Assembly: GCF_000342045.1 (NCBI RefSeq)
Contig: NZ_AONQ01000030.1
Span: 1 to 51,762 of the forward strand
Direction: 5' to 3'
Length of the DNA stretch: 51,762 nucleotides
DNA from: Paramagnetospirillum caucaseum
Lineage (GTDB): Bacteria; Pseudomonadota; Alphaproteobacteria; Rhodospirillales; Magnetospirillaceae
How positions within the stretch are numbered: position 1 is the stretch's first letter; each line of letters begins with the position of its first letter. The position numbers and the translations under genes are program-made. This document shows, one piece after another, positions 17,950 to 45,891 of this stretch. The notes beneath the pieces were generated by a model. It was not told where the DNA came from, did no database searches, and saw only the letters and a list, made by a program, of their open reading frames with translations.

Positions 17950-19728
17950 TCACTCGTCGTCGTAGCGGCCCGGACAGGGCGGCAGGGTCGACAGGATGTC
18001 GCCGCCGTCCGGCTCGCCCATGGCCTTGGCCTTGAGCACCCGGCGCATGATCTTGCCCGAATTGGTCTTGGGCAGTTCCTCGACGAAGTGGATTTCGCGC
18101 GGCGCCATCCCCGCCCCCAGTTCCTGGCGGGCATAGGAGATCAGCTCGGCGCGCAACGCGTCGCCGGCCTCGAAGCCGGGATTGAGCGAGACGAAGGCCA
18201 CCGGCACCTCGCGCACCAGCATGTCGGGCTTGCCCACCACGCCGATCTCGGCCACCGCCGGATGGTCCATCAGGCTGCCTTCCACCTCGAAGGGGCCGAT
18301 CTGCAGGCCGCCGCACTTGATCATGTCGTCGGCGCGGCCGACGAACCAGATGAAGCCGTCCTTGTCGCGCTTGACCAGGTCGCCGGTGAAGTACCAGCCG
18401 TCGCGGAAGCAATCGCCGTAACGGGTCTCCTCGCCCAGGGCGCCGGAGAACATGGAGGGCCAGCAGGTGCGGATGGCCAGTTCGCCCACCACGTCAATGC
18501 CGTCCACCTGTTTCGGCGTGCCGGCCTCGCAACGCATGATCACCGCCTCGACACCCGGCAGGGGCCGGCCCATGCTGCCCGGCCGCCGGTCGGTGCCGGG
18601 GCCGTTGGCGATGGTGATGGCGCCGGTCTCGGTCTGCCACCAGGTATCCAGGAACGGCACGCCCAGCGCCTTCTGCCCCCACATCACCGCCTCGGCGTTG
18701 AGGGGCTCACCGACGCTGGCCGCCACGCGAAGCGAATTCTCGCGGTAGGAGCGGGCAAGGGCGGCGCCATAGCGCATCATGGTGCGGATGGCGGTCGGCG
18801 TGGTGTACCAGGCGGTCACCTTCTCGTCATGCAGGATGCCGTACCAGCGCCGGGGCTCCAGTTCGGCCTCGTCGGCGACCAGGGCGGCGCCGCAGACCAG
18901 CGGCGCGATGATGCCGTAGGAGGTGCTGGTCACCCAGCCGGGATCGGCGGTGCACCAGAACACGTCGGCCTCGGTCAGGCCGAACACCTTGCGCCCGGTG
19001 ACCAGATGGGCCAGCACCGCCCGATGGGGATGCAGCACGCCCTTGGGCGTGCCGGTGGTGCCGCTGGTGAAGTGCAGGAAGGCCGGCGCGTCGGGGGTGG
19101 TCGGCACCGCCTCCATGGGCTGGGCGGCGGCCACCAGGGCGCGAAGATCGGCGCACCCCTGCGGCAGGACGGCAATCGCACCATCCTCGCCGACCAGCAG
19201 AACCTGACGCAGGTGCGGCAGGGCGGCACGCGACGACGCCACCTTGCGGGCATAGAGTTCATCCGAGGTGATGAGGATGGCGGCCTTGCCCAGTTCCAGT
19301 CGGGCCTTGATGGGACCGGGGCCGAAGGCGGCGAACAGCGGGCAATAGACGCCGCCGGCCTTCCAGATGCCCAGCGCCGCGCCGTAGAGTTCGGGAATCC
19401 GGCCCAGCAGTACGGCGACGGTCTCGCCCGGCTCGAGCCCCTGCCCGGCCAGCACCCGGGCGATACGCCCCGATTGCTCGGCCAGTTCGCCATAGGTGAT
19501 GTCGCGCCGTTCCTGGCGGCGGCCCAGCCAGCTGATGGCGGTCGCCGCGCCGCGGCCCAGGCGCACATGGCGATCGGCGCAGACCGAACCGATGTTCAGG
19601 GCGCCGTCCGGCGCCCCCGCCAGTTCGGCCAAGGCGTCGTTCCACCGAAAAGCGGCATCATCCCACGCCCCGGCCTCAGCCGCCGAAGCTGTTGCAGCAA
19701 TGGTCTTGCCCGGCTTGGCCGAAACCAT
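17950..19728 (-). CDS. AMP-forming acyl-CoA synthetase (AcsA-like acetate/short-chain ligase)
   Basis: 592 residues. Adenylating-enzyme motifs are all present: A3 FTSGTTGTPKGV (about 215), A5-type TWWQTETGA, A7 YFTGDL, A8 core GRADDMIKCGG and the catalytic C-terminal Lys in TNSGKIMRR. The enzyme activates a carboxylate to the acyl-adenylate and then acyl-CoA. Overall it resembles the Bacillus AcsA type (about 570 residues) rather than the 650-residue Acs; acetate or another short acid is likely. The ATG at 19726-19728 gives a normal N terminus. No operon partners. Confidence 0.88.
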   Translation of the reverse strand: MVSAKPGKTIAATASAAEAGAWDDAAFRWNDALAELAGAPDGALNIGSVCADRHVRLGRGAATAISWLGRRQERRDITYGELAEQSGRIARVLAGQGLEPGETVAVLLGRIPELYGAALGIWKAGGVYCPLFAAFGPGPIKARLELGKAAILITSDELYARKVASSRAALPHLRQVLLVGEDGAIAVLPQGCADLRALVAAAQPMEAVPTTPDAPAFLHFTSGTTGTPKGVLHPHRAVLAHLVTGRKVFGLTEADVFWCTADPGWVTSTSYGIIAPLVCGAALVADEAELEPRRWYGILHDEKVTAWYTTPTAIRTMMRYGAALARSYRENSLRVAASVGEPLNAEAVMWGQKALGVPFLDTWWQTETGAITIANGPGTDRRPGSMGRPLPGVEAVIMRCEAGTPKQVDGIDVVGELAIRTCWPSMFSGALGEETRYGDCFRDGWYFTGDLVKRDKDGFIWFVGRADDMIKCGGLQIGPFEVEGSLMDHPAVAEIGVVGKPDMLVREVPVAFVSLNPGFEAGDALRAELISYARQELGAGMAPREIHFVEELPKTNSGKIMRRVLKAKAMGEPDGGDILSTLPPCPGRYDDE

Positions 19729-21568: not shown

Positions 21569-21916
21569 AGACGGCCCGACACCCTGCCCCCCCTGACGGA
21601 CGGCCCGTCCCGCGTGGACGCGCCCTTCAGGGAGGATGCTGCACCCGCTAACTCGACAGTATACGCACTTTTTATATGACAAAAGATATCGTTTTTGCGG
21701 TGCAATATTTCCACAACCGCGCCAGCCAGACCCCAAAAATAGTAGGAAATACCCCGTATATTCGGGATTTATCAGAAAACACCCCCTCATCACCCCTAGA
21801 GTCCGTCCGGATAATCGCCCCTAAAAATATTGACAGTATGCCTACTAATATGGTGACAATACCCCTGCGCAGAAAAAGGCCTTGGGCCGAGCACCGATTA
21901 GAGAGGGAGGAGCGAA
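21569..21916 (+). promoter_or_regulatory. AT-rich control region of the corrinoid/one-carbon operon with dyad operator candidate
   Basis: A 348-base gene-free stretch whose centre (about 21650-21880) is much richer in A/T than the flanks. At 21828-21861 a spaced dyad reads TATTGACA ... TGACAATA (7 of 8 arm bases complementary, with AT/AT inside). It overlaps TTGACA (21830-21835), which with GACAAT (21855-21860, spacing 19) forms a weak sigma-70-like promoter. GGGAGGAG precedes the ATG at 21917. No cobalamin riboswitch, sigma-54 site or terminator was recognised. Confidence 0.45.
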
Positions 21917-22576
21917 ATGGCGTTGGACGATTCAGCCTTGGTGGCCGCCATTGCCGACATGGACGAGGACGTGGCTCTCGAACTGGCGCGCGGCGCGCTG
22001 AACGACGGATGCGAGCCCCAGCACATTCTGGATTTGTGCCGCGCCGCCATGGACATCGTCGGCGCGCGCTTCGAGCAGGGGGAGTACTTCCTGCCCGAGT
22101 TGATGATGGCCGGCGAAATGCTCGAGCAGATCGGCGCCATGGTGAAGCCCCTGATGCTGGCCGGCGAAGCCGATGCCGCGGCGTCGGCCGGGCCGGTGGT
22201 GATGATCGGCACGGTCCACGGCGACCTCCACGACATCGGCAAGAACATCGTCACCTTCATGCTGGAGGTGAACGGCTTCAAGGTGGTCGATCTGGGGATC
22301 GACGTGCCGGTGAAGACCTTCATCGACAAGATCAAGGAGCACCAGCCGGTGGTGGTCGGCCTCTCGGGCTTCCTGACGCTGGCCTTCGATTCCATGAAGG
22401 AAACCGTCGACGCCATCGCCGCCGCCGGCCTGCGCGACAGCCTCAAGATCATGATCGGCGGCGGCCAGGTGGACGAGACCGTCCGCGCCTATACCGGCGC
22501 CGACGCCTTCGGCCTCAACGCCATGGCGGCGGTGTCGCTGTGCCAGGAATGGCTGGGCCGGGCCAAGGCCGCCTGA
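21917..22576 (+). CDS. Corrinoid (methyl-carrier) protein of a methyltransferase system
   Basis: 219 residues of the MtaC/MtvC/MttC type. An N-terminal four-helix cap (1-90) is followed by a Rossmann B12 domain (92-215) with the base-off/His-on signature D-x-H-x-x-G as HGDLHDIGKN; His105 should be the lower cobalt ligand. It carries a methyl group on cobalamin between a substrate-specific and a folate-specific methyltransferase. Both partners and reactivation proteins follow in the same operon; the stop overlaps the next frame's alternative ATG by one base. Assignment to family is firm, substrate unknown. Confidence 0.92.
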   Translation: MALDDSALVAAIADMDEDVALELARGALNDGCEPQHILDLCRAAMDIVGARFEQGEYFLPELMMAGEMLEQIGAMVKPLMLAGEADAAASAGPVVMIGTVHGDLHDIGKNIVTFMLEVNGFKVVDLGIDVPVKTFIDKIKEHQPVVVGLSGFLTLAFDSMKETVDAIAAAGLRDSLKIMIGGGQVDETVRAYTGADAFGLNAMAAVSLCQEWLGRAKAA

Positions 22577-22590
22577 TGGAGACCCCCACC

Positions 22591-23853
22591 ATGACCGATA
22601 CCGTCCAGACTCCCGAGGCCAAGGCCGCCTATGACGCCCGCTGGGCCCGCGTCATGGATTGCGTCCAACTGCGCCGGCCCGACCGCATGCCCATCGGCAT
22701 GCAGCCCACCTTCTGGCTGGCCAAGTACGGCGGCATGACCTGCCGCGAGCTGATGTACGACTATGAGCGGACCGCCGCCGTGGCCGAACGGGCCATCCTG
22801 GAGTTCGAGCCTGACTGCCACAGCCCCATGTTCCTGGCCAGCGCCTCGGGGCGCGCCCTGGAGGCCATGGACTTCAAGCAATTGCAGTGGCCGGGCCATG
22901 GGGTCGGCGACAACCAGCCGTTCCAGTATCTCGACCGGGAATACATGAAGGCCGACGAGTACGACGAATTCCTGGAAGACCCCACCGGCTTCTATTTCCG
23001 CAAATACCTGCCCCGGGTGGCGGGCGTGTTCGAGGGGCTCGACGAACTGCCCACCCTTCCCGGCATGTACTACACCCGCCTGGTGATGGGCTCCCGCGCC
23101 TTCGCCAAGCCCGCCGTGCGCCAGGCCCTGGAGCGGATGGTCACCGCCGGGGAGGAGGCCGAGCGGCTGTTCAACCGCCACATGGCCTTCGAGAACAAGA
23201 TGACGGCGCTGGGCTATCCCGCCTCCTACATGTTCTCGTCCATCTCGCCCTACGACTACATCGCCGACTATTTCCGCGGCGCCAAGCAGATCATGACCGA
23301 TCTGTTCCGCCGCAAGGACAAGCTGCACCAGATGCTGGAGAAGGTGCGGATCATCATCACCAGGACCACCATCGAGGCGGTCAAGGCGTCGGGCAATCCC
23401 TTCGTGTTCATCCCCACCCACTGGGCCCCCGATTCCTTCATGTCGGACCAGCAGTTCATGACCTTCTGGTGGCCGCCCTTCCGCCAGATGCTGCTGGACC
23501 TGATCGCCGCCGACATCATCCCCATCCCCATGTGGGAGAGCGACTGCACCAAGCGGCTCGAACACATCGCCGACATTCCCGCCGGCAAGTGCATCTACTG
23601 GTTCGAGCGCACCGACATGGTCAAGGCCTTCGAGGTGCTGGGCGACGTGGTGGCGCTGCGCGGCAACCTGTCGCCGTCGATGATGACCACCGGCCAGCCC
23701 CACGAGGTGGACGCCGCCGTCAAGCATCTGGTGGACAACGTCTTCAACAAGGGCGGCAGCCTGATCCTCGACTGCGCGTTCGGCATTCCCGACGAAACCC
23801 CGGTGGAGAACGTGCGGGCCATGTTCGACGCCGCCCGCAAATACGGCGGCTGA
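22591..23853 (+). CDS. Uroporphyrinogen-decarboxylase-fold methyltransferase (putative substrate:corrinoid methyltransferase)
   Basis: 420 residues of the URO-D superfamily, which besides HemE includes corrinoid methyltransferases such as MtaA, CmuA N-domain and aromatic O-demethylase components. It lacks the HemE N-terminal signature. Visible blocks are a THWAPDSFMSD loop (His near 275), PMWESDC and DCAFGIPDETP, where Glu/His/Cys side chains could bind zinc for methyl activation. Directly behind the corrinoid protein, it is the best candidate for the first methyl transfer from the substrate. GGAG at 22578-22581 supports ATG 22591; ATG 22576, overlapping the previous stop, would add five residues. 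Confidence 0.82.
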   Translation: MTDTVQTPEAKAAYDARWARVMDCVQLRRPDRMPIGMQPTFWLAKYGGMTCRELMYDYERTAAVAERAILEFEPDCHSPMFLASASGRALEAMDFKQLQWPGHGVGDNQPFQYLDREYMKADEYDEFLEDPTGFYFRKYLPRVAGVFEGLDELPTLPGMYYTRLVMGSRAFAKPAVRQALERMVTAGEEAERLFNRHMAFENKMTALGYPASYMFSSISPYDYIADYFRGAKQIMTDLFRRKDKLHQMLEKVRIIITRTTIEAVKASGNPFVFIPTHWAPDSFMSDQQFMTFWWPPFRQMLLDLIAADIIPIPMWESDCTKRLEHIADIPAGKCIYWFERTDMVKAFEVLGDVVALRGNLSPSMMTTGQPHEVDAAVKHLVDNVFNKGGSLILDCAFGIPDETPVENVRAMFDAARKYGG

Positions 23854-23854
23854 G

Positions 23855-25192
23855 ATGACCCCCGCCCGCTGGCATCAGGCTCTTTCGCTGCTGCGCCCCC
23901 TGGTGAGCCTGATCGGGCGCCGGCGGCTGGAGCAGCCTTTGGCCTGGGCCGAGCGGGCGTTGAAGCGGCGGCTGTTCGGCTGCCGCATGTGCGGCCAGTG
24001 CGCGCTGGACGCCACCGGCATGGGCTGCCCCATGCGTTGTCCCAAGGGATTGCGCAACGGCCCGTGCGGCGGCGTGCGGTCCAACGGCACCTGCGAGCTG
24101 GATGCCTCCATGGCCTGCGCCTGGAAGGACATCTGGTCGCGGCTGGACGGGGAATTGCCGCCGCGCCAGCCGCTGCTCGACCATCGCCGGGCCGGCCGGT
24201 CCGCCTGGCTGGCCGAGATTCTCGACCCCAAGCCGGCGGCCCCCGACCTGCCGCCCGACCGGGCGTTCGCCAAGGGACGGCTGCAGGCCAGGCTGGAGGC
24301 CGGCGACTTCGTGGTCACCGCCGAGATCGGCCCCGGCACCGCCGCCGACGGTTCGGCCCTGCTGGCCCAGGCCGGCAAGCTGGGCCCCTGGGTCGACGCC
24401 ATCAACGTCACCGACGGATCGGCGGCCCATTGCGCCCTGTCCAGCATGGCCGCCGCCGCCCTGCTGCGCCGCGCCGGCCATGACGCGGTGATGCAGATGA
24501 CCTGCCGCGACCGCAACCGCATCGCGCTGCAGAACGATCTGCTGGGCGCCGCCGCCCTGGGCATCGAGAACGTGGTCTGCCTGACCGGTGACGGCGTGCT
24601 CAACGGCGACCATCCCGAGGCCAAGCCGGTCTTCGACCTGGACGCGGTGGCCCTGGTCGCCACCGCCAAGACCCTGCGCGACGGCGGGCGCTTCCTGTCG
24701 GGCCGCGCCCTGACGGTGCCGCCCGGCTATTTCATCGGGGCGGTGGATAATCCCTTCGCCCCGCCCGAGCCCGCCCGGGTCCAGCGGCTGGCCGCCAAGG
24801 TGGCCGCCGGCGCCCAGTTCGTCCAGACCCAGTACGTTTTCGACATCCCGGCTTTCACCTTGTACATGGAACGGCTGCGGGCCGCCGGGCTGCACCGCCG
24901 CTGCCACGTCATCGCCGGGGTGGGCATGGTGGCCTCGGCGCGGACCGCCCGCTGGCTGACCGCCAAGGTGCCGGGGGTGCGCATCCCCGACGGCGTGGTG
25001 CGCCGGCTGGAACAGGCCGCCGACCCGGTGGCCGAGGGCGCCGCCCTGGCGGTGGAGCTGATCGGCGCCCTGCGCCGGATCGACGGCGTGGCCGGGGTCC
25101 ATCTGATGTTCCACCATCACCTGGAGATGATCGAGGGCGTCATCACCGCGGCCGGCCTTGCCGGCCCGCGTCAGCGCCGGCGGGTAGCATGA
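23855..25192 (+). CDS. MetV-MetF fusion: methylenetetrahydrofolate reductase with N-terminal Cys-rich MTHFR_C domain
   Basis: 445 residues. The N-terminal 100 residues form the Cys-rich domain (PF12225-like, as in MetV of acetogens) with eight Cys at 43, 46, 49, 58, 62, 71, 80 and 88, suited to Fe-S or zinc binding. Residues about 135-440 are the MetF TIM barrel, with the catalytic Glu in TAEIGPG and folate/flavin blocks NVTDG, TCRDRNR and LTGDG. It interconverts methyl-THF and methylene-THF; in a demethylation pathway it would run in the oxidising direction. The start overlaps closely with the UroD-type gene (1-base gap) and the stop overlaps the next start. Confidence 0.88.
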   Translation: MTPARWHQALSLLRPLVSLIGRRRLEQPLAWAERALKRRLFGCRMCGQCALDATGMGCPMRCPKGLRNGPCGGVRSNGTCELDASMACAWKDIWSRLDGELPPRQPLLDHRRAGRSAWLAEILDPKPAAPDLPPDRAFAKGRLQARLEAGDFVVTAEIGPGTAADGSALLAQAGKLGPWVDAINVTDGSAAHCALSSMAAAALLRRAGHDAVMQMTCRDRNRIALQNDLLGAAALGIENVVCLTGDGVLNGDHPEAKPVFDLDAVALVATAKTLRDGGRFLSGRALTVPPGYFIGAVDNPFAPPEPARVQRLAAKVAAGAQFVQTQYVFDIPAFTLYMERLRAAGLHRRCHVIAGVGMVASARTARWLTAKVPGVRIPDGVVRRLEQAADPVAEGAALAVELIGALRRIDGVAGVHLMFHHHLEMIEGVITAAGLAGPRQRRRVA

Positions 25193-25875
25193 TGCGGATC
25201 GATCCCGCCCGCCTCGCCCGGGGATTGGCGCGCCAGGCCATGGCCTCGGTCCAGACCAGCGCGCGCCCGGCGGTCACCCGCCGCCTGCACGGACTGGCCG
25301 CCGAGATGGAGACCCTGCTGATGCCACGGGCCTCGGTCCGGGTGGTTTCCGCCCGGATGGAGGGGCGTGATTGCCTGCGCCTGGCGGACGGGCCGGAACT
25401 GAGGGGCAGCTTCGTCAACCGCTTCAAGGGCGCCCGCAAGGCGGCGGTGGTGTTCGCCACCCTGGGCCCGGCCTTCGCCGAGCATACCTCCGCCTGCTTC
25501 GCCCGCGGCGCGGCGGTGGAAGCCGCCCTGTACGACCAGATCGGCACCAAGGCGGTGTGGCGGCTGGGCCAGCGGCTGCTGGCCGGCCTGCGCCTCGAGG
25601 CGCGCAAGGACGGCCTGCGGGCCGGCGGCGCGCTGTTTCCCGGCGACCCCGGCCTGCCGCTGTCCGCCCAGTCGGTGCTGGCCGAAATCGGCCGTCCGGC
25701 CGACGCCGGAATCGAAGTGGTGGCGGGCGGCCTGCTGTCGCCGCTGAAATCCCTGTCCATGGTGGTGGCGCTGGGCGACGACCTGAAGCGCTGGAGCCGC
25801 CTCAGCTCGTGCCGGGAATGCCGTTATTTCGAACGCTGCCGCAAGCCGGCGGAAACCCGTCAGGTCTGCCGATGA
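25189..25875 (+). CDS. Methionine-synthase-activation-domain-like protein with C-terminal Cys cluster
   Basis: 228 residues. The central part (NRFKGARKAAVVFATLG, then a helix with AVEAALYDQIGTKAVW) resembles the vitamin B12-dependent methionine synthase activation region found as a stand-alone protein in acetogen methyl clusters. The C terminus adds Cys208, Cys211, Cys217 and Cys227 (C-x2-C-x5-C-x9-C), an arrangement suited to a [4Fe-4S] cluster. I infer a role in binding or reducing the corrinoid protein together with the activase downstream. The ATG overlaps the previous stop (ATGA); a second ATG follows immediately. Family call is by eye. Confidence 0.65.
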   Translation: MMRIDPARLARGLARQAMASVQTSARPAVTRRLHGLAAEMETLLMPRASVRVVSARMEGRDCLRLADGPELRGSFVNRFKGARKAAVVFATLGPAFAEHTSACFARGAAVEAALYDQIGTKAVWRLGQRLLAGLRLEARKDGLRAGGALFPGDPGLPLSAQSVLAEIGRPADAGIEVVAGGLLSPLKSLSMVVALGDDLKRWSRLSSCRECRYFERCRKPAETRQVCR

Positions 25876-27446
25876 GCATCCGCGTCTCCTTCCAGCCCTC
25901 GGGGATCGACGGCGGCGCGCCCGCCGGCGAATTGCTGCTGGAGACGGCGCGGCGCCTGGGCGCGCGGATCGGAGCCAGCTGTGGCGGGCGGGGCAAGTGC
26001 CGTTCCTGCGCCATCCGCCTGGAAGGCGATCATCTGCCCGAGGCATCGGCCCCCGACCGCGAGGTCTTTTCCGCCGCCGAGCTGGAGTCCGGCTGGCGCC
26101 GCGCCTGCCAGACCCGGATTTCCCAGTCCTGCCGGGTTCACGTCTCGGCCCGCACCCACGGCGCGGCGGTGATGCACGGCCAGGCCATGACCGCCACCCG
26201 CGTCGGCATCGCCGAACCGGTCGCGGCGTCCGGCCTCGGCCTGGCGGTGGATCTGGGCACCACCAACCTCGCCGCCTCGCTGATCGATCTGGAGACCGGC
26301 GCGGTGGTGGCCCAGGCGGCGCTGGAAAATCCCCAGGCCATCTACGGCGGCGACGTCATCAGCCGGGGAGGGCGGGCGCTTCGCGACCCCGAGGCGGCGG
26401 GCGAGCTGCGCCGTCTGGCGGTGACGGCGATCGCCGCCCTGGCCCACACCGTGACCGGCGGCCGACCCGAGACCGTGCATCATCTCGCGGTGGTGGGCAA
26501 TTCGGTGATGCAGCACCTGCTGCTGGGGCTGGCGGTGGAGGGGCTGGTCAAGGCGCCCTACCGCCCGCTGCTGTCGGAGGCCCACGACCGGCCGGCCGAG
26601 GATTTCGGCCTCGCCCCCGGCGCCCGGCTGCATGTGGGCCCCAACATCGCCGGCTTTGTCGGCAGCGACCACGTGGCGGCCCTGCTGGACGTCCTGGATT
26701 CAGAGCCCCAGGGCTGCTGGGCCCTGCTGGACATCGGCACCAACACAGAGATTTCGCTCTTCCGGGATGGGCGGCTGGTCAGCGCCTCCTGCCCGTCGGG
26801 GCCGGCCTTCGAGGGCGGCGCGCTGACCTGCGGCATGCGGGCCGCGCCGGGTGCGGTGGAGCGGGTCCGCATCCATGGCGACCGTGCCGATTTCGGCGTC
26901 ATCGGCGACGCCGACCCGGTGGGGCTGTGCGGATCGGGCGTGCTGTCGCTGATGGCGGAGCTGCGCAAGGCCGGGATCGTCGACCGGCGGGGGCGGCTCG
27001 GCGGCGACCATCCCCTGGTGCGCGAACGCGGCCACGTCCGCGAGGTGGTCCTGGCCGGCGAGGCCGAGACCGGCGGGCCGCCGGTGACCTTCACCCAGGC
27101 CGATATCCGCAACGTGCAGTTGGCCAAGGCCGCCATCCGCGCCGGCCTCGACCTGATGCTGGAGCACGAGGGAATCGGCCCGGCCGCTCTCGACCGGGTG
27201 CTGGTGGCCGGCGCCTTCGGCAAATACATCGACCTGGGCGACGCGGTGGCCATCGGCATGCTGCCCGACCTGGAGGCCGGGCGCTTCAGCCAACTGGGCA
27301 ACGCGGCCGGTGCCGGGGTCGGCCGCATGCTGGCCTGCCACGGCGCCCGGCGGCGGGCCGGCGAAATCGCCAGAACCGCCCATCACCTGGACCTGGGAGC
27401 CCGCCCGGACTTCCAGAAACGCTTCATCGCCCGGATGGGTCTGTAA
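25872..27446 (+). CDS. RACo-type corrinoid protein reductive activase ([2Fe-2S] + ASKHA ATPase)
   Basis: 524 residues. An N-terminal ferredoxin domain has Cys37, Cys43, Cys46 and Cys79 (C-x5-C-x2-C-x32-C) for a [2Fe-2S] cluster. A linker (85-120) leads to the DUF4445/RACo_C ASKHA domain with phosphate motifs DLGTTNLA (about 125) and LDIGTNTEI, and adenosine-type VAGAFGKYIDL. RACo uses ATP to return inactive Co(II) corrinoid to the methyl-accepting Co(I) form, a need specific to corrinoid methyl pathways. It overlaps the preceding gene by four bases. This is the strongest single indicator that the operon works through a corrinoid protein. Confidence 0.92.
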   Translation: MSIRVSFQPSGIDGGAPAGELLLETARRLGARIGASCGGRGKCRSCAIRLEGDHLPEASAPDREVFSAAELESGWRRACQTRISQSCRVHVSARTHGAAVMHGQAMTATRVGIAEPVAASGLGLAVDLGTTNLAASLIDLETGAVVAQAALENPQAIYGGDVISRGGRALRDPEAAGELRRLAVTAIAALAHTVTGGRPETVHHLAVVGNSVMQHLLLGLAVEGLVKAPYRPLLSEAHDRPAEDFGLAPGARLHVGPNIAGFVGSDHVAALLDVLDSEPQGCWALLDIGTNTEISLFRDGRLVSASCPSGPAFEGGALTCGMRAAPGAVERVRIHGDRADFGVIGDADPVGLCGSGVLSLMAELRKAGIVDRRGRLGGDHPLVRERGHVREVVLAGEAETGGPPVTFTQADIRNVQLAKAAIRAGLDLMLEHEGIGPAALDRVLVAGAFGKYIDLGDAVAIGMLPDLEAGRFSQLGNAAGAGVGRMLACHGARRRAGEIARTAHHLDLGARPDFQKRFIARMGL

Positions 27447-27462
27447 CCAACGGAGGCTTTCC

Positions 27463-28335
27463 TTGAACGAGCAATGGACCATTATCGGCGAGCGCATCAA
27501 TCCCGGCTTCAAGAGCACCAAGGCGCTGTTCGAGACCAAGGATATCGCCGGTATCCAGGCCCTGGCGGTCAGGCAGGCCGAGGCCGGCGCCCGCTACCTC
27601 AACGTCAATGCCGGCATGGCGGGCGAGAAGGATCACGGCTTCGCCCGCGACATGGTCAAGGCCATCCAGGAGGCAGTTCCCGTCCCGCTGTCGTTCGACT
27701 CCGCCTCGCCCGAGCTGCAGCGGATCTATCTCACCACCTACGACGCCGACAAGGCGGGTGGCGCCAAGCCCATGATCAACTCCATCGCCGAGACCCGCCT
27801 GGACATGCTGGACATGCTGGCCATCCGGCCCTGCAAGGTGATCGTCATGGCCTCGGAGCGCCTGGAGGACGGCGCCGGACGGCGCAACGTCAAGGCCCAG
27901 GACGTGATCGACGTGGCCCGGCGCATGGTGGCCCACACCGACCGGCTGGGGGTGCCCCACGACGACCTCGTCATCGACGTCTCGGTGAGCGCCATGGCCG
28001 CCGACAGCGAGGGCCTGACCCGCATGGCGCTGGACGCCATCCGGACGATCGGCTCCGATCCCGATCTGGCCGGGGTCCACATCACCGGCGGCATCAGCAA
28101 TATCGGCCAGCAACTGCCGGCCAAGACCACCCAGGGCGCCGACCTCAAGCACAAGCTGGAATGCGCCTTCCTGACCATCGCCACCCCCCTGGGCTTCGAC
28201 ACCATCCTCGGCACGCCGTGGAAGGAGTACCATCTGCTGCCCGAGGACGATTTCGTCATGGAGGTCTTCCGCGACTTCATCACCCGCTCGGGCCTCGACG
28301 CCCTGCGTCAGGTCAGAAAGCTGTACAAGGCATGA
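27463..28335 (+). CDS. Methyltetrahydrofolate:corrinoid methyltransferase (AcsE/MtvA-like, pterin-binding)
   Basis: 290 residues forming a single pterin-binding TIM barrel: GERINPGF at the start, LNVNAG, FDSASPE, a PMINSIAE strand, VIDVSVSA and GGISNIGQQLP. These are the folate-binding blocks of MeTr from acetogens and of the folate-side enzyme in O-demethylases. It transfers the methyl group between the corrinoid protein and THF. The start is TTG at 27463, fixed by a GGAGG six bases upstream; no ATG fits. Confidence 0.9.
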   Translation: MNEQWTIIGERINPGFKSTKALFETKDIAGIQALAVRQAEAGARYLNVNAGMAGEKDHGFARDMVKAIQEAVPVPLSFDSASPELQRIYLTTYDADKAGGAKPMINSIAETRLDMLDMLAIRPCKVIVMASERLEDGAGRRNVKAQDVIDVARRMVAHTDRLGVPHDDLVIDVSVSAMAADSEGLTRMALDAIRTIGSDPDLAGVHITGGISNIGQQLPAKTTQGADLKHKLECAFLTIATPLGFDTILGTPWKEYHLLPEDDFVMEVFRDFITRSGLDALRQVRKLYKA

Positions 28336-29492
28336 AGCGCCTCGTCGTCGGCTCCTATTTCGATGGCGAGCGCCATCACGCGGACGGTCCCTACGCCATC
28401 CTCCACGAGAGCGGCGCCATCCTGGGCGTCGAGCGGGTGGAAGGCGGCGTCGACGCCCGGGATGGCGCCGCCTTCGCCATGCCCTCCCTGGTGGACGCCC
28501 ATGTCCACATCTTCCTGGACGGCGCCGAGCTGGACCCGGCCCGGCGCAAGCAGGCCATGGCGGCGGGCGAGGCCGAATCCCTGGCCGTCGCCCGGACCAA
28601 CGCCGAAGCCTCGTGGCGGGCCGGGCTCGGCCTGATCCGCGACGCCGGCGACCCGCGCGGCATCAACCACGCCGCCCGGCGGGAGCTGGCGGCGGCCGGC
28701 CATCCCATCCGGCTGCGCTCGCCCGGCCCGGCCCTCCACCGCCCCGGCCGCTACGGCTCGTTCCTGGGCGCCGCCATCGCCGAGGATAGCGACGCCGCCC
28801 GGGTGGTGTCGGAGCTGTGCCTGGACGCCGACGACATCAAGGTGCTGCTGACCGGGGTGATCGACTTCGCCAGCGGCACGGTCAAGGGCAAGCCCCAGTT
28901 CGACGAGGCCGCCGCCACCGCCATCGTCGCCGCCGCCCGCCGGCACGGCCGCCCCACCTTCGCCCATTGCAACGGGCCGGAAGGCCTCGCGGTGGCCATC
29001 CGGGCCGGCTTCGACTCCATCGAGCACGGTTACCTGATGGACGAGGAGAGCCTGCGGGCCATGGCCGGGGAAGGCATCGCCTGGACCCCCACCCTGGCCC
29101 CCGTAGCGGCGCAGCGCCATCTGGCGCCCGACGTCTCGGGCTTCGGTCCGGACATCCTCGCCTGTCTCGACACCATCCTGGCGCGGCATGCCGAATCCAT
29201 CCTGCGGGCCGCCCAATTGGGGGTGGCGCTCTATTGCGGTTCCGACGCCGGCGGCCAGGGCGTGCCCCACGGCGGCGGCCTGGTGGACGAGATGCTGCTG
29301 CTGGCCGGGGCGGGCGTGCCCATGGAGACCCTGCTGGCCGGCGCCACCGCCCTGCCCCGCGCCCGCTGGGGCGAGCCGGCATCCCTGATCCGGGCGGGGG
29401 AAGCCTTCGACCCCGTGGTCATGCCCCACTCGCCCTTCCTCCAGCCCCAGGCCCTGCGCCAGGCCCGCCGGCCCCACAGCGGAGACCGATAA
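28332..29492 (+). CDS. Amidohydrolase-superfamily enzyme of unknown substrate
   Basis: 386 residues. The metallo-amidohydrolase ligand set is complete: H57 and H59 (DAHVHIF), a Lys candidate in DDIKVLL, His in FAHCNG, His in IEHGY and Asp in GSDAGG. The fold is that of imidazolonepropionase- or cytosine-deaminase-like enzymes acting on cyclic amides and amidines. It overlaps the methyltransferase stop by four bases (ATGA), so it belongs to the operon. Two readings are possible: it opens or deacylates the methylated substrate, or it hydrolyses methenyl-THF, a cyclic amidine, in place of the FolD cyclohydrolase that seems defective in the next gene. Both are inference. Confidence 0.8.
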   Translation: MKRLVVGSYFDGERHHADGPYAILHESGAILGVERVEGGVDARDGAAFAMPSLVDAHVHIFLDGAELDPARRKQAMAAGEAESLAVARTNAEASWRAGLGLIRDAGDPRGINHAARRELAAAGHPIRLRSPGPALHRPGRYGSFLGAAIAEDSDAARVVSELCLDADDIKVLLTGVIDFASGTVKGKPQFDEAAATAIVAAARRHGRPTFAHCNGPEGLAVAIRAGFDSIEHGYLMDEESLRAMAGEGIAWTPTLAPVAAQRHLAPDVSGFGPDILACLDTILARHAESILRAAQLGVALYCGSDAGGQGVPHGGGLVDEMLLLAGAGVPMETLLAGATALPRARWGEPASLIRAGEAFDPVVMPHSPFLQPQALRQARRPHSGDR

Positions 29493-29494
29493 GC

Positions 29495-30760
29495 ATGCCC
29501 GCCGCCGCCCTTGCCCTGTCCCCCACCCATCACGACATGCTCGGCCGCCCGGTGGCGGGGGCCATTCTGGAGGAGGTGGCGGCCGAGGCGGCCCGCCTCG
29601 CCGCCCTGGGACGGCCGCCCCGTCTGGTGTCCATGACCATCGGCGATACCGCCCCGGTGGAGGTGTACGTGCGCAACCAGCGCCGGGCGGCGGAGACGGC
29701 CGGTATCGGCTTCTCCTGCCTCGCCCTGCCGGCCGACGTCGCCCAGGCGCAGGCCCTGGCCGAGATCAGGCGGCTGAACGCGGACGATTCCGTCACCGGC
29801 ATCATCCTGCAGCGCCCGGTGCCGCCGCACCTGTCGGTGAAATCCCTGCAAGGCGCCATCCTGCCGGCCAAGGACGTGGAGGGGATGCACCCCGCCTCCA
29901 TCGGCAACATCGTCTACGGCAATTCCAGCATCGGCCCGTGCACCGCCCTGGCCTCGGTGGAGATGCTGCGCCGCACCGGCCTCAGGCTGGAAGGCCTGGA
30001 GGTGGTGGTGATCGGCCATTCCGAGATCGTCGGCAAGCCCATCGCCTTCCTGCTGATGGCCGAAGGCGCCACCGTCACCGTCTGCCACCACATGACCCGC
30101 TCGGTGGCCATGCATTCCAGGCGGGCCGACGCGGTGTTCGTCGCCGTGGGCCGGCCCCACCTGATCGGCCCCGACATGATCAAGCCCGGCGCCGTGGTCA
30201 TCGACATCGGCATCAACCAGATCACCGATCCCCAGGGCCGCTCCCGGGTGGTGGGCGACGTGGACACCGACGCGGTGCGCGGCGTGGCCGGCTGGATCAC
30301 TCCGGTTCCGGGAGGAGTCGGACCGGTCACCGTCGCCATGCTGATGCGCAACGCCGTGCGCGCCGCCGGCCTGAACCGGCCCGCCGCGGTTGCGGCGGCG
30401 GCGGCCGTCGACCGGGTGCTGGTGGAAGGATTGGACCTGGAGATGTCCATCGGCCTGCATCCGTGGGAGATGAACGCGCTTCAGCCGGTCCGCATCGATC
30501 TGGAGATCGACTGCGAACGCCGCCCGCTGGGGGCGGAACCGGTGGTCTGCTACGAGCGGCTCAGCCGGCGGGTACGGGATCTGGCCGCCGCCGGCCATGT
30601 TGAACTGGTCGAAACCCTGGCCGAACGCATCGCGGGGCTTTGCCTTGCCGATCCCCGCGTGCACCGAGCCGCCGTGTCGGTCCGCAAGACCAGTGCCATT
30701 CCCGGGACTTCCGCCGTGGGGGTGAAAGTCATCCGGGAGAAGACAGAAAAAGCAATGTGA
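29495..30760 (+). CDS. FolD-FolB fusion: methylenetetrahydrofolate dehydrogenase with C-terminal dihydroneopterin aldolase-like domain
   Basis: 421 residues. Residues 15-300 align with FolD: Y58 of the YVxxK motif, Q106, the NADP loop VIGHSEIVGKP and the closing TPVPGGVGP. The cyclohydrolase Lys (E. coli K54, human K56) is Gln62 here, and DVDG is DVEG (E129). Residues about 307-415 align with FolB, keeping Glu in HPWEMN and Lys in VRKTSAIPG. The NADP(H) dehydrogenase step is likely intact while cyclohydrolase is likely lost. The fused FolB domain may act in pterin formation, or have another role on a pterin. Lies two bases after the amidohydrolase. Confidence 0.85.
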   Translation: MPAAALALSPTHHDMLGRPVAGAILEEVAAEAARLAALGRPPRLVSMTIGDTAPVEVYVRNQRRAAETAGIGFSCLALPADVAQAQALAEIRRLNADDSVTGIILQRPVPPHLSVKSLQGAILPAKDVEGMHPASIGNIVYGNSSIGPCTALASVEMLRRTGLRLEGLEVVVIGHSEIVGKPIAFLLMAEGATVTVCHHMTRSVAMHSRRADAVFVAVGRPHLIGPDMIKPGAVVIDIGINQITDPQGRSRVVGDVDTDAVRGVAGWITPVPGGVGPVTVAMLMRNAVRAAGLNRPAAVAAAAAVDRVLVEGLDLEMSIGLHPWEMNALQPVRIDLEIDCERRPLGAEPVVCYERLSRRVRDLAAAGHVELVETLAERIAGLCLADPRVHRAAVSVRKTSAIPGTSAVGVKVIREKTEKAM

Positions 30761-30777
30761 CAGAGAGGGAGGTTGTC

Positions 30778-31941
30778 ATGATCGCAAAGTTTGTCGCTGG
30801 AGCCGCTGTGGCTGCCATGATGTGCGTCGGCGGGGGCCAAGGCGCCCGCGCCGCCGAGGATATCCGGATCGGCGCATTCCTGTCGGTGACGGGAGTGATG
30901 TCGCTGATGGGCGATCCGGAAAAACGGACCCTGGACATGCTGGTGGAGAAGATCAACGCCGAGGGCGGCGTTCTCGGCCGCAAGATCCAGCTGATCACCT
31001 ATGACGACGGGTCCGAGCCGGAAAAGGCCACCACCTTCGTCAAGCGCCTGATCGACAACGACAAGGTCGACATCATCATCGGCGGATCGGGCACGCCCAC
31101 CTCCATGGCGGTGCTGGGCCTGATCGAGCGCGCCGAGATGCCCTACATCTCCCTGGGCGGCGGGGTCAGCATCGTCGAACCGGTGCGCAAATGGGTGTTC
31201 AAGGTGCCGCCCACCGACCGCATGGCCGCCGACCGGGTCCTGGCGGAAATGAAGTCCCGCGGCCTGACCAAGATGGCGATCCTGTCGGAGAACGTCGGCT
31301 TCGGAAAGTCCGGGCACGACCACACCGTGGCCCTGGCGCCCAAATACGGCATCGAGATCGTCGCCGACGAGGTTTATTCCCCCAAGGACCCCGACGTGAC
31401 CGCGCCACTCGCCAAGATCCGCTCCACTCCCGGCGTCCAGACCCTGTTCGTGTTCGGCAGCGGCAACGGCCCGGCGGTGGTGACCAAGAATATCCGCCAG
31501 CTCAACCTCAACATTCCGGTCTATCAGTCCCCCGGGGTGGCGTCGCGGGAGTTCCTGCGGCTGGTGGGCAACGCCGCCGACGGCATGCGCCTGGCGGCCG
31601 GCGCGCTGATCGTCGCCGAGCAGCTTCCCGCCAACGATCCCCAGCGGCCGGTGGTGGTCAACTTCAAGCGCATGTTCGAGGAAAGGAACAAGCCCATGGA
31701 CGTCAGCACCCTGGCGGGACACGGCTGGGATTCGCTGATGATCGTCACCGAGGCCATCAAGCGGGCCGGCGGCACCGACAAGGCCAAGGTCAGGGACGAG
31801 ATCGAGAAGACCAGGAACTTCATCGGCACGGCGGGCATGGTCAACATGTCGCCCACCGACCATCTGGGCCTGGGCGACGACGCCTATCACATGATCGAGG
31901 TCAGGAACGGCGACTGGGTCCTGAGCAACCGGCCCCTGTAA
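30778..31941 (+). CDS. Periplasmic branched-chain-amino-acid-type (LivJ/HAAT) substrate-binding protein
   Basis: 387 residues. A cleavable signal peptide (MIAKFVAGAAVAAMMCVG ... ARA, cleavage about residue 26) is followed by a type I periplasmic binding fold starting IRIGAFLSVTG, with the family block GGSGTPTSMAVLG. HAAT-type receptors bind branched amino acids, amides or aromatic carboxylates. It is the last gene of the operon, 17 bases after folD-folB behind a GGGAGG site, and a GC-rich hairpin follows. No Liv permease or ATPase genes are present, so it must share a transporter encoded elsewhere; its ligand may be the demethylation substrate. Confidence 0.88.
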   Translation: MIAKFVAGAAVAAMMCVGGGQGARAAEDIRIGAFLSVTGVMSLMGDPEKRTLDMLVEKINAEGGVLGRKIQLITYDDGSEPEKATTFVKRLIDNDKVDIIIGGSGTPTSMAVLGLIERAEMPYISLGGGVSIVEPVRKWVFKVPPTDRMAADRVLAEMKSRGLTKMAILSENVGFGKSGHDHTVALAPKYGIEIVADEVYSPKDPDVTAPLAKIRSTPGVQTLFVFGSGNGPAVVTKNIRQLNLNIPVYQSPGVASREFLRLVGNAADGMRLAAGALIVAEQLPANDPQRPVVVNFKRMFEERNKPMDVSTLAGHGWDSLMIVTEAIKRAGGTDKAKVRDEIEKTRNFIGTAGMVNMSPTDHLGLGDDAYHMIEVRNGDWVLSNRPL

Positions 31942-31955
31942 CCCCGCGAGAGGTT

Positions 31956-31987
31956 GCCGCCGGCCGGGCCCGCCCCCGGCCGGCGGC
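31956..31987 (+). terminator. GC-rich hairpin after the one-carbon operon
   Basis: Perfect 13-bp stem GCCGCCGGCCGGG/CCCGGCCGGCGGC with a 6-base loop, 14 bases after the last stop. No T-run follows, so it may rely on Rho or just stabilise the 3' end. The remaining bases to 32129 hold nothing recognisable. Confidence 0.55.
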
Positions 31988-45749: not shown

Positions 45750-45891
45750 AATCAGGTAACCCTCCCTCGCAGAAGGGACGCGGCCCGTTGGGGGACCGTG
45801 GCCCGGGCGGAGTGTATGAGGGCGAAGGGGGATTCGCAACGAAGCATTTGAAGCTGGCGCGGATTTCACGCCGCTTGCTATCCTCGCGGCC

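What the first reader, a model, noticed from the sequence alone, without database searches (positions are those of the whole stretch)
21569..31987. Nine-gene corrinoid-dependent methyl-transfer and oxidation operon
Seen: corrinoid protein, UroD-type methyltransferase, MetV-MetF, MetH-activation-like protein, RACo-type activase, methyl-THF:corrinoid methyltransferase, amidohydrolase, FolD-FolB and a binding protein, all on one strand; most junctions overlap or are within about 15 bases. Known: these parts make up O-/N-/S- or halo-methyl demethylases of acetogens and methylotrophs (Mtv, Cmu, Mta types). Inferred: the module strips methyl groups from an imported compound and oxidises them via THF. 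No formate-THF ligase, PurU, CO-dehydrogenase or MttB/MtrH type enzyme is present, so the combination differs from the well-described systems.
Basis: partly seen in the sequence, partly recalled or inferred. Interest (0 to 1): 0.88.

Follow-up and report, generated by a model that had tools for sequence, protein, structure and literature searches.

The report
Oxygen-free methyl-stripping operon in Proteobacteria
This is a conserved bacterial gene cluster that probably removes methyl groups from plant-derived (lignin-type) aromatic compounds without oxygen, using vitamin B12, and burns them to carbon dioxide; the chemistry is known from other microbes, but this version in ordinary Proteobacteria seems little described.

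Summary
Nine same-strand genes (21917-31941), with junctions from 4-base overlaps to 17-base gaps, encode a corrinoid protein, a UroD-superfamily methyltransferase, a MetV-MetF fusion, a MetH-reactivation-fold protein, a RACo-type activase, a pterin-binding methyltransferase, an amidohydrolase, a FolD-FolB fusion and a periplasmic binding protein. The UroD protein is not HemE; its nearest solved relative is CdmB (chloromethane), whose published relatives MtvB/OdmB/VdmB/MtoB are aromatic O-demethylases. One genome scan gave 45 related loci (lower bound). In the 29 with the reactivation-fold gene, activase and second methyltransferase follow wherever enough sequence is held (25/25, 21/21), the amidohydrolase in 15/18. 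Ten of 45 loci hold a VanA-type aromatic O-demethylase gene (0.17 expected); 20 of 38 carrier genomes have benzoyl-CoA reductase. The binding protein's solved relatives include ferulate-binding CouP. Most likely: an oxygen-independent O-demethylase for methoxylated aromatic acids, oxidising the methyl group via THF and formate. The substrate is inferred, not shown. PurU and formate dehydrogenase lie elsewhere in the genome; formate-THF ligase is absent. New variant of a known kind. Open: the substrate, the amidohydrolase's role, and the invariant Cys3 motif on the reactivation-fold protein.

The parts
21569..21916 (+). leader with reduced GC, presumed promoter region; no Rfam match and no sigma-70 consensus match
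21917..22576 (+). corrinoid protein (B12-binding_2 + B12-binding), DxHxxG motif at D103/H105/G108
   Evidence: Pfam; best PDB 4jgi 4.3e-52; motif at least 95% conserved in 32 sequences
22591..23853 (+). UroD-superfamily methyltransferase, presumed substrate-specific MTI (O-demethylase)
23855..25192 (+). MetV-MetF fusion, methylene-THF reductase
   Evidence: PF12225 + PF02219
25189..25875 (+). stand-alone MetH-reactivation-domain-fold protein with C-terminal C-x2-C-x5-C
25872..27446 (+). RACo-type ATP-dependent corrinoid activase (Fer2, RACo_middle, RACo_C_ter)
27463..28335 (+). methyl-corrinoid:THF methyltransferase (MTII, pterin-binding)
28332..29492 (+). amidohydrolase with intact candidate metal site H57, H59, K170, H212, H232, D305; role open
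29495..30760 (+). FolD-FolB fusion; accessory, present in few relatives
30778..31941 (+). periplasmic substrate-binding protein (PF13458); solved relatives include the ferulate-binding protein CouP
31956..31987 (+). perfect 13-base inverted repeat after the last gene, possible transcript end

Best explanation
The operon encodes an oxygen-independent, corrinoid-dependent O-demethylase for imported methoxylated aromatic acids, coupled to oxidation of the methyl group. Proposed steps: the binding protein captures the aromatic acid for an ABC transporter encoded elsewhere. RACo, assisted by the reactivation-fold protein, reduces the corrinoid protein to Co(I). The UroD-type enzyme presents the aryl methyl ether to Co(I), giving methyl-Co(III) and the phenol. 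The pterin-binding methyltransferase moves the methyl to THF. MetV-MetF and FolD oxidise it to formyl-THF, chromosomal PurU releases formate, and formate dehydrogenase makes CO2. The demethylated ring goes to the benzoyl-CoA pathway without oxygen, or to oxygenases with it. Shown here: gene content, conservation, fold and motif assignments, and presence of PurU, FolD, formate dehydrogenase and benzoyl-CoA reductase genes. Inferred: substrate class, direction, transport, and the roles of the reactivation-fold protein and the amidohydrolase.
For: The UroD family matches CdmB far better than HemE or MtaA (profile E 1.8e-55 vs 1.9e-9 and 2.4e-4), and the CdmB paper calls MtvB, OdmB, VdmB and MtoB, its close relatives, aromatic O-demethylases (PMC13222342). 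The reactivation-fold gene lies next to the UroD gene in 29 of 45 loci, with the rest of the core behind it. VanA-type genes lie in 10 of 45 loci on 10 different genomes; all ten positions coincide with VanA_C matches over cut-off; 0.17 expected from 41 such genes in 167.7 Mb. VanB-type reductases in 5 and LigB genes in 3 of the 45 loci. Benzoyl-CoA reductase over cut-off in 20 of 38 carrier genomes, 0 of 14 control genomes, and in the window's genome. The binding protein accompanies CP+UroD in all four loci found in the genus; its solved relatives include CouP with ferulate, 4jb0. MarR regulators flank three relatives. Formate dehydrogenase subunits lie in the L029 operon; formate-THF ligase not found in 3 of 3 genomes; PurU, FolD and FDH present.
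Against: No biochemical evidence. The closest solved relative is a haloalkane enzyme, not an O-demethylase, and no MtvB/OdmB/VdmB/MtoB sequence could be fetched for comparison. VanA lies in 10, not most, of 45 loci, and no VanA-, VanB- or LigB-like gene was found in window 13001-40000 or in the three genus relatives' stretches. VanA is common enough genome-wide (23 of 38 carriers, but also 4 of 14 controls) that only its position is telling. No ABC permease is among the nine genes. Benzoyl-CoA reductase is in 15 of 17 genomes of the genus, so it does not discriminate there. PF13458 proteins carry many ligand types; the two nearest (3sg0, 4dqd) bear no ligand or organism in the tool output.
Confidence: 0.68

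Rival explanations
1. Cdm-like haloalkane dehalogenation: the UroD protein directs chloromethane or another small haloalkane to Co(I).
For: CdmB is the only close solved relative; CdmB does not act on methoxylated aromatics (PMC13222342).
Against: A periplasmic binding protein accompanies the enzyme in all four loci found in the genus, which a gas does not need; VanA, VanB and LigB neighbours in relatives. H277 and E316 (invariant in 44 sequences) and C319 and C334 (at least 90%) align with W, Q, H and A in CdmB, which has no metal.
Confidence: 0.1
2. Another methyl donor: a methylated thiol, amine, betaine or non-aromatic ether, demethylated and oxidised in the same way.
For: The corrinoid protein scores best on methylamine and betaine corrinoid models, though far under their cut-offs (157 vs 350 bits); the MTI substrate is not readable from sequence.
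Against: No MttB-family domain among the nine proteins; the binding protein is PF13458 with CouP among its solved relatives; aromatic-gene context in relatives.
Confidence: 0.15
3. Reverse, biosynthetic use: serine-derived methyl-THF is passed through the corrinoid protein to methylate an acceptor.
For: The transfers are reversible in principle; methyl transfer onto estrogens is reported in estrogen-degrading bacteria (PMC7448270, title and start of abstract in a search listing; the B12 part is recalled).
Against: Formate dehydrogenase subunits within the L029 operon, the binding protein, and catabolic neighbours in relatives. Methionine synthesis needs no help: a 1220-residue frame of MetH size with the B12-binding_2 domain lies elsewhere in the genome (not tested with a MetH model).
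Confidence: 0.05
4. The UroD protein is a porphyrin decarboxylase (HemE paralogue) and the cluster is a heme/B12 gene set.
For: URO-D Pfam domain; the predicted model has URO-D fold, with HemE structures on top.
Against: 45 bits against a 303-bit HemE cut-off; CdmB far ahead of HemE by sequence; most operon partners are C1 enzymes.
Confidence: 0.02

Closest known systems
MtvABC / Odm / Vdm / Mto O-demethylase systems (acetogens, methoxydotrophic archaea)
   Same: UroD-superfamily MTI, separate corrinoid protein, pterin-binding MTII, RACo-type activase
   Different: Window is joined to a methyl-oxidation module (MetV-MetF, FolD) and a binding protein in an organism in which no formate-THF ligase was found; adds a reactivation-fold protein and an amidohydrolase.
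CdmBCA of Acetobacterium dehalogenans (PMC13222342)
   Same: Nearest solved MTI; same three-component layout
   Different: CdmB acts on haloalkanes and lacks metal; candidate metal ligands of the window family are not kept in CdmB; different operon and lineage
CmuAB chloromethane pathway on pCMU01 (PMC3621897, passages)
   Same: Methyl oxidised through MetF, FolD, PurU; an amidohydrolase gene (presumably the hutI of the paper) lies beside cmuA
   Different: CmuA has only 33-bit local similarity and is described as methyltransferase and corrinoid-binding domains in one protein; the cmu amidohydrolase is not a close homologue
MtgBCD glycine-betaine demethylation in marine alphaproteobacteria (PMC12478193, passages)
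   Same: Modular corrinoid demethylation with RamA and H4F-linked oxidation in Proteobacteria
   Different: MTI for an osmolyte (MtgB) and a shared role in methionine synthesis, by the passages read; no sequence comparison made
VanAB aerobic vanillate O-demethylase
   Same: Proposed same substrate class; VanA-type gene found beside the UroD gene in 10 of 45 loci
   Different: Oxygen-dependent Rieske enzyme; unrelated protein

Membership tests
UroD-superfamily corrinoid methyltransferase systems (Mtv/Odm/Vdm/Mto/Cdm type) | MTI nearer to CdmB than to HemE, MtaA or CmuA | tested here: met
   CdmB 191.7 bits vs HemE 40 or less and MtaA 23; CmuA 33 bits. No MtvB/OdmB/VdmB/MtoB sequence was compared
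UroD-superfamily corrinoid methyltransferase systems (Mtv/Odm/Vdm/Mto/Cdm type) | Separate corrinoid protein with DxHxxG | tested here: met
UroD-superfamily corrinoid methyltransferase systems (Mtv/Odm/Vdm/Mto/Cdm type) | Pterin-binding MTII with THF-binding residues | tested here: met
   D79, N106, D172, N213 align with 2yci and are at least 95% conserved in 28 sequences; that these bind THF is recalled
UroD-superfamily corrinoid methyltransferase systems (Mtv/Odm/Vdm/Mto/Cdm type) | ATP-dependent activase (RACo type) | tested here: met
Aromatic O-demethylases proper | Methyl transfer from a methoxylated aromatic to the corrinoid protein | not testable with these tools
   context only
Aromatic O-demethylases proper | MTI groups with MtvB/OdmB/VdmB/MtoB in a tree | not tested
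   no such sequence could be fetched; the tree holds 46 rows of the present family only
Cdm chloromethane system | Metal-free MTI with hydrophobic channel and haloalkane activity | tested here: inconclusive
   candidate metal ligands conserved in the window family but not in CdmB; channel and activity not tested
Cmu system | MTI and corrinoid domain in one protein (CmuA) | tested here: not met
   separate genes; weak similarity
HemE | Passes the HemE equivalog cut-off | tested here: not met
   45.4 of 302.95 bits
Acetogenic Wood-Ljungdahl pathway | Formate-THF ligase | tested here: not met
   PF01268 not found in 3 of 3 genomes; the same search rang in 4 of 14 controls

The most novel reading that the evidence does not exclude
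A previously unnamed, horizontally spread oxygen-independent counterpart of VanAB in facultative Proteobacteria, with two new biochemical parts: a stand-alone MetH-reactivation-fold protein that has swapped AdoMet for a Cys3-bound Fe-S cluster as the electron entry for RACo, and an amidohydrolase that hydrolyses a THF-bound C1 unit (10-formyl- or 5,10-methenyl-THF) in place of PurU or a cyclohydrolase.
Probability: 0.15. Interest if true: 0.85.

Novelty: new variant of a known kind. Interest (0 to 1): 0.6.

Why it matters
Nitrate-dependent growth of Proteobacteria on methoxylated aromatics was reported decades ago (recalled; Taylor 1983 is cited for veratrate O-demethylation in PMC10602745, passages), and my searches listed no paper naming genes for it. 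If right, this cluster is a marker for anaerobic lignin-monomer demethylation in soils, sediments and groundwater outside acetogens and archaea, and it shows many genomes holding both an oxygen-dependent (VanA, 23 of 38 carriers) and an oxygen-independent route. It is directly testable in a cultured carrier: Azospirillum sp. TSO22-1 holds seven of the partners in one cluster (L041). The statement that it is not in print rests on the listings, which cover openly licensed papers only and were capped at 12 to 25 rows each.

Tried and rejected
PurU replacement: I suspected that the amidohydrolase replaces PurU. PurU is over its cut-off in 3 of 3 genus genomes and 28 of 38 carrier genomes, so replacement is not required. 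The ten others are metagenome-assembled by title and of unknown completeness, and one of them (G431) shows PurU in two adjacent pieces. An amidohydrolase matching the window's at 129 bits sits outside any recognisable C1 cluster in Acetoanaerobium, which weakens a C1-only role. Parallel with the cmu amidohydrolase: superfamily level at most.

Direct placement against MtvB/OdmB/VdmB/MtoB was not possible: the one genome-contig scan, which used two peptide patterns of this family, returned only this family, and plasmids gave no UroD match. Foldseek of the UroD model put HemE and MtaA on top; CdmB is not listed, probably because the library ends in April 2026. Cobalamin riboswitch: none. Promoter and terminator scans were no better than shuffles. 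In the UroD tree only 14 of 43 inner branches are well supported; the cluster label needs 9 changes against 12.8 in shuffles, so it is partly clustered, and I draw little from it. A zinc motif for O-demethylases was sought in PMC8630106 and not found, so the metal-site idea is inference. The VanA Poisson figure (3.8e-15) treats loci as independent and so overstates the significance.
Full report
What is there. The nine genes reported at 21569-31987 are real and tightly packed on the + strand. The widest gap is 17 bases and three junctions overlap by 4 bases. Families: B12-binding corrinoid protein; URO-D protein; MetV(DUF5981)-MetF fusion; a protein without Pfam or NCBIfam match; RACo with an N-terminal 2Fe-2S domain; Pterin_bind methyltransferase; Amidohydro_1; FolD-FolB fusion; Peripla_BP_6. 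No Rfam regulatory RNA lies in the region.

The unassigned protein. By itself its best PDB match was a Thermotoga MetH reactivation domain, 1j6r, at E 0.0017. A profile of 28 sequences raised this to 8.2e-7. The AlphaFold2 model (mean pLDDT 88) matched methionine synthase structures as its top 19 hits (best 1j6r, E 8.5e-9). C208, C211 and C217 are invariant in the 28 sequences; they lie in a low-confidence C-terminal tail of the model. Where 1j6r reads FRISPGYGDLPLS the window reads GALFPGDPGLPLS, so the R and Y of the AdoMet-contact pattern RxxxGY (recalled) face A and D. I infer a reactivation partner that does not use AdoMet.

The UroD protein. It fails the HemE cut-off (45 of 303 bits). 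Against PDB sequences its best hit is CdmB (9rui, 3.2e-35; next HemE 1.3e-4). A 44-sequence profile gives CdmB 1.8e-55, HemE 1.9e-9 and MtaA 2.4e-4. The CdmB paper (outline and parts 1-3 of 11 read; passages) says that CdmB's close relatives MtvB, OdmB, VdmB and MtoB demethylate methoxylated aromatics while CdmB does not, and that no zinc was seen in CdmB. In the window family H277 and E316 are invariant and C319 and C334 at least 90% conserved among 44 sequences; CdmB has W, Q, H and A there in the printed alignment. This may be a metal site, as inference only.

Methyl transfer and oxidation. The second methyltransferase keeps D79, N106, D172 and N213, which align with 2yci and are at least 95% conserved in 28 sequences. 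In the window's genome PurU is over its cut-off, a second FolD exists, formate dehydrogenase alpha is over its cut-off, and no formate-THF ligase was found. In the relative G002 the operon itself carries formate dehydrogenase alpha and a NuoF-like subunit. This makes an oxidative route to CO2 the natural reading.

Distribution. In the window's genus, 3 of 17 genomes carry the methyltransferase, one of them twice (88%, 72% and 63% identity). In 385 genomes drawn from the class, the 16 matching genomes other than the window's own had weak matches only (best E 1.9e-8). By record titles they are mostly Alpha- and Betaproteobacteria, several only 'Proteobacteria', one Gammaproteobacteria, one Terriglobia and one symbiont 'Delta 1'; most are metagenome-assembled. 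Around the UroD gene, of 45 loci: corrinoid protein 32, reactivation-fold 29, RACo 26, MTII 25, MetV-MetF 19, amidohydrolase 18, all six partners 13; 13 had the UroD gene alone, some on short or cut contigs. Of the 29 loci with the reactivation-fold gene, RACo follows in 25 of 25 and MTII in 21 of 21 with enough sequence, the amidohydrolase in 15 of 18 (in one of the three misses, L052, it follows a second copy of the cluster). FolD occurs in 2 of 45, so it is an accessory. In the UroD tree the cluster label needs 9 changes against 12.8 in shuffles; support is mostly weak, so transfer and loss are suggested, not shown.

Substrate clues. VanA-type Rieske genes lie in 10 of 45 loci on 10 different genomes. 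Two were checked by Pfam, and all ten positions coincide with VanA_C matches over cut-off. The 38 genomes hold 41 VanA_C genes in 167.7 Mb, so 0.17 would be expected in the 680 kb held. Of the ten, 8 have the cluster. VanB-type reductases are in 5 of 45 loci and LigB in 3. Benzoyl-CoA reductase A is over cut-off in 20 of 38 carrier genomes and 0 of 14 controls, VanA in 23 of 38 and 4 of 14 controls, one or both in 33 of 38. In the window's genus benzoyl-CoA reductase is common (15 of 17), so there it only suggests that the ring can be handled. The binding protein accompanies CP+UroD in all four loci found in the genus, at 88-90% identity in two relatives and 52% in the third. Its best PDB relatives are 3sg0 and 4dqd (about 1e-50; R. 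palustris by recall, not named in the output), and further down the list 4jb0 (1.7e-32), which is CouP of R. palustris with ferulate (PMC3610893, passages). MarR-type regulators sit beside the corrinoid gene in three relatives; none was found in window 13001-40000.

Against this reading: no VanA-, VanB- or LigB-like gene was found in window 13001-40000 or beside the three genus relatives, no permease is among the nine genes, the nearest solved enzyme is a dehalogenase, and the named O-demethylases could not be put into the tree. I give 0.68 to aromatic O-demethylation and about 0.9 to catabolic methyl transfer of some kind.

The amidohydrolase. Its candidate metal set is invariant in 21 of 21. 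Its solved relatives are named amidohydrolase, amide hydrolase, imidazolonepropionase, Xaa-Pro dipeptidase and, further down, ochratoxinase. Its place behind MTII suggests a C1 or folate role; its amidase relatives would equally allow release of aromatic acids from amide conjugates. I do not choose firmly between them.

Known or new. The core is the known Mtv/Odm/Cdm design, and B12-dependent demethylation coupled to H4F oxidation is published for glycine betaine in alphaproteobacteria (PMC12478193, passages). Ten searches of the held library showed, in their capped listings, no description of a UroD-type corrinoid O-demethylation operon in Alpha- or Betaproteobacteria; subscription papers are not covered. 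I file it as a new variant of a known kind.

Noticed in passing
L030:4241-8248: A second, minimal copy in G002: MarR, corrinoid protein and UroD protein with a divergent 52%-identical binding protein; no MTII or activase within the 19.5 kb fetched, so it may share those of the full operon.
   Followed up: partly
L028:13257-13607: In G013 the same operon has FolB alone where the window has a FolD-FolB fusion.
   Followed up: no
L086: Acetoanaerobium noterae 'plasmid' pTPELB2 is 2.63 Mb with 4 listed features and looks like a chromosome; it holds a related amidohydrolase (129 bits) outside a recognisable C1 cluster.
   Followed up: partly
L052:9076-21160: Two successive copies of corrinoid-UroD-reactivation-RACo in one contig, suggesting duplicated specificity.
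   Followed up: no
L029:3383-4468: The binding protein is 90% identical to the window's although the operon's other shared proteins are only 33-72% identical, suggesting separate exchange of the binding protein.
   Followed up: no
window 17950-19728: AMP-ligase-like gene (by clustering with other loci) on the opposite strand about 2 kb upstream of the operon; AMP ligases recur near some related loci.
   Followed up: no
window 45756-45808: serC leader (Rfam RF00517) just above its gathering score (36.3 vs 35).
   Followed up: no
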